Assembly (NCBI GenBank): GCA_016931695.1
Contig: JAFGEI010000022.1
Coordinates: 1-64,000 of the forward strand
Source: Anaerolineae bacterium
GTDB lineage: Bacteria > Chloroflexota > Anaerolineae > B4-G1 > DUEL01
Length of the DNA: 64,000 nt
Direction: 5' to 3'
This document shows, piece after piece, positions 17,662-59,634 of this stretch. A program made the position numbers and the translations under genes. Below the pieces are notes generated by a model. The model saw only the letters and a list, made by a program, of their open reading frames with translations. It was not told where the DNA came from and ran no database searches. Each line of letters opens with the position of its first letter. Within the stretch, counting starts at the first letter, position 1.

Positions 17662-17807
17662 GACAATGGCACATTTCAACATTGGATGCTCTACCGCAGT
17701 GGGAGAAGGGGAAAAGGGGGTTTCGCAGGCGGCTTCGCCGCCTGCGAAACCCCCTTTTCCCCCTTCCCCGTGCTTGGCAGAGCAATCTAATGAAATGTGC
17801 CATTGTC
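17662..17807. repeat. 146 bp palindromic, MITE-like element (element A)
   Basis: Perfect 17 bp terminal inverted repeats GACAATGGCACATTTCA / TGAAATGTGCCATTGTC; near-perfect central hairpin AGGGGAAAAGGGGGTTTCGCAGGCGGC-TTC-GCCGCCTGCGAAACCCCCTTTTCCCC. Confidence 0.8.
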
Positions 17808-17841
17808 AAAGTAACCACTGTAACTGCCCCAGAATCTGGTC

Positions 17842-58130: not shown

Positions 58131-58271
58131 ATGTAACTGCTCAGGAAGCTCTCCCACTCTGGAAGAGGGAAAAATGTGGAGTTGCGGGCGGCTTCGCCGC
58201 CCGCAACTCCCACATCCTCCCCTTTCTGGACTTGGGAGGGATTCCAGAGGCAACCGGCCGAGCAGCTACAT
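58131..58271. repeat. Palindromic element B in the comEA leader
   Basis: Imperfect terminal repeats ATGTAACTGCTCAGG / CCGAGCAGCTACAT; central GTGGAGTTGCGGGCGGC-TTC-GCCGCCCGCAACTCCCAC. Confidence 0.78.
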
Positions 58272-59007: not shown

Positions 59008-59036
59008 TTGACAATGCTGCTTACTTGTGGTAATCT
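59008..59036 (+). promoter_or_regulatory. Predicted promoter upstream of the roadblock gene
   Basis: TTGACA - 17 bp - TAATCT. Confidence 0.5.
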
Positions 59037-59044
59037 CTAAAAAG

Positions 59045-59195
59045 TTGTAACTGCTCAGGCTATTCGCCTGGGGGTGTCGTCCGCTGACCCACGCGGGGCT
59101 TGGCTAACTGAGCCCGGCCGCTTTAGCGCCGGGCGAGGACACGGAAAGAGCAAACATGCTTCTGAACCAGCCCATCCAAAGTTGAGCAGTTACAA
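59045..59195. repeat. Palindromic/structured element C in the roadblock gene leader
   Basis: 13 bp perfect inverted repeats TTGTAACTGCTCA (59045-59057) / TGAGCAGTTACAA (59183-59195) enclosing internal hairpins. Confidence 0.75.
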
Positions 59196-59259
59196 AATCT
59201 CTTGTCTGCACATTTCACTGCAGGGAGAGGCGGCTGATTTATACCTGAAGGAGCATAGA

Positions 59260-59634
59260 ATGGCAGGAAAATCCCGTACTGAAAGAATGGTGGAACGCCT
59301 GCGCGAACTGCAGATGAGCACACCGGATATTGAAGCCTCGGCTGTGGTGAGCGTGGATGGGCTGAGCATCGCTTCCTCCCTGCCGGGAGACGTAGAGGAG
59401 GATCGGGTCTCGGCAATGTCTGCCGCTATGCTGTCGCTGGGCGAGCGGATTGCCAGCGAGCTGGGTCGGGGAAACCTGGACGAAGTATACGTAAAAGGTA
59501 TCGGCGGTTACGTCATCCTGACCGCCGTTGGAGAGGAAGCGGTTTTAACCGTCTTGGCGCGCGGGGGGGCCAAATTGGGCCTCGTCTTTTTGGAAATGCG
59601 CCGCGCAGCCGAGGAATTATCGGATATATTATAA
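59260..59634 (+). CDS. Roadblock/LC7 domain protein
   Basis: ATG preceded by GAAGGAG; DIEASAVVSVDGLSIASSLPGDVEEDRVSAMSAAMLSLGERIASELGRG. Confidence 0.88.
   Translation: MAGKSRTERMVERLRELQMSTPDIEASAVVSVDGLSIASSLPGDVEEDRVSAMSAAMLSLGERIASELGRGNLDEVYVKGIGGYVILTAVGEEAVLTVLARGGAKLGLVFLEMRRAAEELSDIL

What the first reader, a model, noticed from the sequence alone, without database searches (positions are those of the whole stretch)
59045..59195. Element C: structured leader with the same GTAACTGCTCA terminal stem as element B
TTGTAACTGCTCA/TGAGCAGTTACAA form a 13 bp closing stem. Inside are CAGGC-TATTC-GCCTG, CCCGGC-CGCTTTAGC-GCCGGG and a GTGTC/GACAC pairing, giving a multi-branched layout unlike the single long hairpin of B. 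It again starts right after a promoter (TTGACA-17-TAATCT). Two neighbouring genes with leaders sharing the same 5' end suggests either a mobile element that targets promoters or an undescribed structured leader RNA.
Basis: partly seen in the sequence, partly recalled or inferred. Interest (0 to 1): 0.75.

Follow-up and report, generated by a model that had tools for sequence, protein, structure and literature searches.

The report
IS66-type mini-transposon in a gene leader
The supposed structured leader RNA is a 147-base miniature transposon, one of a family that runs to dozens or more copies in this Anaerolineae-type bacterium. It landed just after an old, conserved promoter, so it is an ordinary mobile repeat rather than a new kind of RNA.

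Summary
The 13-bp inverted repeat is real, but it is the terminal repeat of a miniature inverted-repeat transposable element (MITE), not the closing stem of a conserved RNA. The mobile unit is 59047-59193 (147 bp, GTAACTGCTCA...TGAGCAGTTAC).

The host genome has 145 near-exact copies of the terminus, against 14 for the reversed-pattern control. Of 86 paired copies (four genomes) with flanks, 48 have an exact 8-bp target duplication (about 0.05 expected). GTAA ends plus 8-bp duplications mark the IS66 family. A full-length single-ORF IS66 element in a same-class genome has the identical 14-bp terminus at both ends. The published active IS66/ISBst12-group element ISDge4 has nearly the same one (GTAACTGCTCAGCA).

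The promoter upstream is conserved in 25 of 29 relatives, none with an element between promoter and gene. In the closest relative the -10 lies 77 nt from the ATG; here it is 76 nt once the element is subtracted.

The nearest sibling copy differs at 12 positions, none compensatory. Without the terminal repeat, the interior folds no better than shuffles (z -0.67).

New here: an apparently undescribed MITE family, often beside promoters. A regulatory effect on the roadblock gene is possible but untested.

The parts
59008..59036 (+). Ancestral promoter of the roadblock gene, TTGACA-17-TAATCT with TGTGG before the -10; not part of the element
   Evidence: Conserved in 25 of 29 orthologous upstream regions (score >=13/16; 0 of 200 random 180-mers reach 13)
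59039..59046 (.). Left flank AAAAAGTT, candidate decayed target-site duplication
   Evidence: 5 of 8 identical to the right flank AAAATCTC; about 3% by chance in shuffled flank pairs
59047..59193 (+). Element C: 147-bp non-autonomous IS66/ISBst12-type MITE
   Evidence: 135/147 identical to the shared part of the C25 copy, which has a 7/8 target duplication
59047..59057 (+). Left terminal inverted repeat GTAACTGCTCA
   Evidence: 145 genome copies at <=1 mismatch against 14 control; GTAACTGCTCAGGC at both ends of full IS66 element L095
59183..59193 (-). Right terminal inverted repeat (TGAGCAGTTAC)
59095..59098 (.). GGGG junction where this copy lacks 117 bp present in the C25 copy (internal deletion here, or insertion there)
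   Evidence: clean single gap in the alignment
59095..59135 (+). Interior repeat module GGGGCTTGGCTAACTGAGCCCGGCCGCTTTAGCGCCGGGCG, also found outside MITEs
59194..59201 (.). Right flank AAAATCTC, candidate decayed target-site duplication
59260..59634 (+). Roadblock/LC7-domain gene whose 5' leader holds the element
   Evidence: Robl_LC7 PF03259, E 8.9e-20; orthologues start at this ATG
58133..58269 (+). Element B: another copy of the same MITE superfamily, main long-hairpin type; flanks ATAACGAT/ATACCGAC 6/8

Best explanation
Element C is a non-autonomous miniature transposon (MITE) whose ends are those of a single-ORF IS66 element (ISBst12 group). Shown: it is a discrete repeat with GTAACTGCTCA ends, its family has 8-bp target duplications, it has siblings elsewhere in the genome, and relatives have the same promoter and gene without it. 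Inferred: an IS66-type transposase, now absent or unassembled in this genome, moved it in trans. It landed about 10 bases downstream of the -10 of the roadblock gene's ancestral promoter. It is therefore probably transcribed as a 147-nt insertion in that gene's 5' leader, where the terminal repeats can pair. It supplies neither the promoter nor the ribosome-binding site. Any effect on expression is incidental or weak.
For: Copy number: 145 matches to the terminus against 14 reversed-pattern control in the host genome; 213, 123 and 20 matches in three relatives against 0, 1 and 0 control. Target duplications: 48 of 86 paired copies exact at 8 bp, almost none at any other length, 0.05 expected. 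Sibling: the C25 copy matches ends and interior over all 147 bases at 92%, with a 7/8 target duplication. Transposase link: L095 encodes a 491-aa IS66 transposase (PF03050 E 4e-43, zf-IS66) between two GTAACTGCTCAGGC ends; related elements L100, L102 and L108 have exact 8-bp duplications; an IS66 remnant lies between such ends in G024. Published ISDge4 has TIR GTAACTGCTCAGCA and an 8-bp duplication (PMC12898284). Equivalent site without the element: promoter conserved in 25/29 relatives; -10 to ATG 77 nt in the closest relative against 76 nt here after subtracting the element.
Against: Element C's own target duplication is only 5/8. No IS66 transposase was found in the host assembly, so its source is inferred from relatives. 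The interior does not resemble IS66 ends beyond about 14 bp, so derivation by simple internal deletion of an IS is not shown.
Confidence: 0.95

Rival explanations
1. A cis-regulatory structured leader RNA (riboswitch or attenuator) of the roadblock gene.
For: Lies between promoter and gene; folds somewhat better than shuffles with the terminal repeats included (z -2.77).
Against: Absent from the leader in all 29 orthologues examined. Its siblings sit at unrelated sites. No compensatory changes against C25. Interior no better than shuffles. No Rfam family reaches its cut-off. No terminator-like site.
Confidence: 0.02
2. A MITE that has since been co-opted: its stem in the 5' leader changes stability, translation or transcription of the roadblock operon.
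For: Position right after the -10. MITEs are known to act this way, e.g. a Correia element downstream of the mtrCDE promoter (review PMC10969869). The roadblock start and upstream ribosome-binding region remain intact.
Against: No comparative sign of constraint: decayed flanks, apparent internal deletion, and no relative with the same insertion.
Confidence: 0.15
3. A mobile element that actively selects promoter regions as targets.
For: 15 promoter-like sites facing the element in 168 flanks, against 8 facing away and 2.1 +/- 1.4 in shuffles; 14 of the 15 end within 20 nt of the element. Flanks are AT-rich, 48% GC against 63% for their loci.
Against: Copies in genes are lost by selection, which alone enriches promoters: sites spanned by an open frame of >=600 nt are 44% for elements against 83% for random sites. 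Most copies show no promoter-like site.
Confidence: 0.2
4. A REP-type palindrome mobilised by a Y1 (RAYT) transposase.
For: The interior module GAGCCCGGCCGCTTTAGCGCCGGGC occurs alone elsewhere.
Against: 8-bp duplications and IS66-type ends do not fit Y1 chemistry; no Y1_Tnp in the host genome.
Confidence: 0.03

Closest known systems
ISDge4 of Deinococcus geothermalis (IS66 family, ISBst12 group; PMC12898284)
   Same: Terminus GTAACTGCTCAGCA and an 8-bp target duplication; its first 12 bases, GTAACTGCTCAG, are identical to the left terminus here
   Different: ISDge4 is autonomous, with a 449-aa transposase; element C has no transposase gene
Single-ORF IS66 element in a same-class genome (L095, G078:C31, 1560 bp)
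   Same: GTAACTGCTCAGGC at both ends, identical to the left end of element C
   Different: Codes for a 491-aa transposase; interior unrelated; its own flanks match only 5/8
Bacterial MITEs such as Correia, MITEAba12 and MITECca01
   Same: Short, non-coding, terminal repeats, intergenic bias, possible structured transcript
   Different: Other parent IS families; the prokaryotic MITE review PMC10969869 contains neither 'IS66' nor 'Chloroflex'
REP/BIME palindromes (PMC3733652)
   Same: The interior carries a REP-like hairpin module that occurs elsewhere
   Different: Whole unit has IS66-type ends with target duplications; no GTAG tag or RAYT association seen

Membership tests
IS66/ISBst12-type MITE | Short, with no transposase gene | tested here: met
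   147 bp; no transposase frame within it
IS66/ISBst12-type MITE | Terminal inverted repeats starting GTAA and matching an IS66-family element | tested here: met
   Left end identical (14/14) to L095; right end identical over 11 nt; ISDge4
IS66/ISBst12-type MITE | 8-bp target-site duplication, family level | tested here: met
   48 of 86 exact, 66 of 86 at >=6/8
IS66/ISBst12-type MITE | 8-bp target-site duplication, this copy | tested here: inconclusive
   5/8 (AAAAAGTT/AAAATCTC), about 3% by chance
IS66/ISBst12-type MITE | Multiple dispersed copies | tested here: met
IS66/ISBst12-type MITE | Site without the element in relatives | tested here: met
   29 orthologous leaders lack it; promoter-gene distance restored on subtraction
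IS66/ISBst12-type MITE | Mobilised in trans by an IS66-type transposase | not testable with these tools
   No PF03050 in the host assembly; present in other genomes of the class
Structured cis-regulatory leader RNA | Conserved with the downstream gene | tested here: not met
   Absent from all 29 orthologous leaders
Structured cis-regulatory leader RNA | Covariation supporting the interior stems | tested here: not met
   12 substitutions against C25, 0 compensatory, 3 predicted pairs broken; only one full sibling was available
Structured cis-regulatory leader RNA | Interior more stable than shuffles | tested here: not met
   z -0.67
Structured cis-regulatory leader RNA | Transcript covering the element | not testable with these tools
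   No RNA data; transcription inferred from the conserved promoter

The most novel reading that the evidence does not exclude
IS66-type MITEs in these bacteria settle preferentially at transcription start sites and so place long palindromic stems in the 5' leaders of many genes, forming a genome-wide set of leader hairpins that affects expression. The main (element B) type keeps its palindrome through paired changes.
Probability: 0.15. Interest if true: 0.5.

Novelty: new member of a known kind. Interest (0 to 1): 0.2.

Why it matters
It removes a false candidate for a new regulatory RNA and shows a general trap: terminal repeats of a mobile element can pass for the closing stem of an RNA, and even co-vary between lineages. 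It also documents an abundant IS66-type MITE family in Anaerolineae-type genomes, a parent family and a phylum that do not appear in the prokaryotic MITE review read here. Copies often lie beside promoters.

Tried and rejected
Rfam at gathering score: no hits. At relaxed E-value only microRNA-like chance matches to element B's hairpin and other weak chance matches, none over element C. An apparent autonomous element in L025 proved to be a CofD-like gene between two separate termini. IS66 transposase in the host genome: none. Y1/RAYT transposase as the source of the interior module: none in the host or in G004 and G002, present in G021 and G032, so unresolved. A viral-contig scan failed on the server side and was not repeated. 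A first promoter pattern had the wrong spacing and was replaced.

Full report
What is there. The window is contig C159 of a 3.87-Mb draft genome. Its order-level relative G024 is very likely the MAG Anaerolineae bacterium Zod_Metabat.1210: a matched contig has the same length, 13808 bp, and the same sequence hit. The inverted repeat at 59045-59195 is exact over 13 bp. The unit repeated in the genome is GTAACTGCTCA...TGAGCAGTTAC, 59047-59193; the base outside it is random among copies.

It is a repeat family. TGTAACTGCTCA with at most one mismatch occurs 145 times in the host genome, against 14 for the reversed pattern. GTAACTGCTCAGGC with at most one mismatch occurs 213, 123 and 20 times in relatives G005, G024 and G010, against 0, 1 and 0. 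Many copies lie at contig ends, as expected for repeats that break assemblies. I extracted 91 paired copies; 86 had both flanks. Of these, 48 carry an exact 8-bp direct repeat immediately outside the termini, while exact repeats at other lengths are almost absent. Shuffled flank pairs give 0.05. Element B has a 6/8 match, element C 5/8 (about 3% by chance), and C's closest sibling (contig C25) 7/8.

It belongs to IS66. IS66-family elements have ends starting GTAA and 8-bp duplications (PMC11946415). No IS66 transposase is in the host assembly. In G024 a remnant of one lies between such ends. Searching its C-terminal part across the class gave full-length elements. L095 has a 491-aa transposase with IS66 DDE and zinc-finger domains and GTAACTGCTCAGGC at both ends; L100, L102 and L108 have related ends and perfect 8-bp duplications. 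The published, actively transposing ISDge4 (ISBst12 group) has the end GTAACTGCTCAGCA and an 8-bp duplication (PMC12898284).

The site without it. The roadblock gene (Robl_LC7) has orthologues in almost all relatives. In 25 of 29 the same promoter, TTGACA-17-TA..CT or TAATTT with TGG (or TGA) before the -10, lies upstream; random sequence never reaches that score. None has the element in the leader. G005 has an independent copy upstream of its promoter; the weak L213 match is a two-mismatch hit upstream of its promoter, probably chance. In the closest relative, G003, the -10 is 77 nt from the ATG. Here the distance is 223 nt, or 76 nt without the element. The promoter is therefore older than the element, and the element is an insertion.

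Not an RNA family. Against the C25 copy, element C has 12 substitutions and one clean 117-bp gap at a GGGG run. No substitution is compensatory and three predicted pairs break. With its terminal repeats it folds at z -2.77, without them at z -0.67. The 264-bp C25 copy is strongly structured (z -9.33), so element C, if it is the deleted form, has lost most of that. The closing stem does vary symmetrically between lineages (GTAACTACTCAG in G024, GTAACTGTTCAG in G010), but full-length IS66 elements do the same. That is transposase recognition, not RNA selection.

Promoters. Promoter-like sites facing the element number 15 in 168 flanks, against 8 facing away and 2.1 +/- 1.4 in shuffles. Copies avoid long open frames (44% against 83% for random sites). 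Target choice and survival cannot be told apart here.

Literature. A review of prokaryotic MITEs does not mention IS66 or Chloroflexi and gives precedent for a MITE acting just downstream of a promoter (Correia at mtrCDE; PMC10969869). My searches found no IS66-derived MITE in Anaerolineae; the library holds open-licence papers only.

Verdict. An ordinary kind of mobile element, in an apparently undescribed family, inserted in a 5' leader. Regulatory effect: possible, untested.

Noticed in passing
window 17662-17808: A second, unrelated miniature element: GACAATGGCACATTTCA...TGAAATGTGCCATTGTC, 147 bp with a long inner hairpin. The same terminus lies just downstream of the C140 copy of element C (L004) and in L127 and L138.
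   Followed up: partly
window 58133-58269 and alignment A2 (16 copies): The main MITE type (element B) is a near-complete palindrome in which 9 of 55 predicted pairs show changes on both sides. Loops occur in both orientations (TTC/GAA). This may be DNA-level palindrome correction; unexplained.
   Followed up: partly
window 59095-59135; L005, L006, L008-L012, L014, L017, L018: The interior module with the hairpin GCCCGGC-CGCTTTA-GCGCCGGGC also occurs outside the MITEs in several genomes; G016 has 11 copies of a related form. No Y1 transposase in the host; its mover is unknown.
   Followed up: partly
L202 (G005:C479): An independent copy of the same MITE superfamily lies just upstream of the promoter of the orthologous roadblock gene in G005.
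   Followed up: no
window 59074-59634: A GTG-started open frame runs through the element in frame into the roadblock gene, which could extend the protein; orthologues support the start at ATG 59260.
   Followed up: no
G058, G154, G187, G289: Many short, near-identical IS66 C-terminal fragments, often at contig ends, suggest high-copy IS66 elements or truncated derivatives in other genomes of the class.
   Followed up: no
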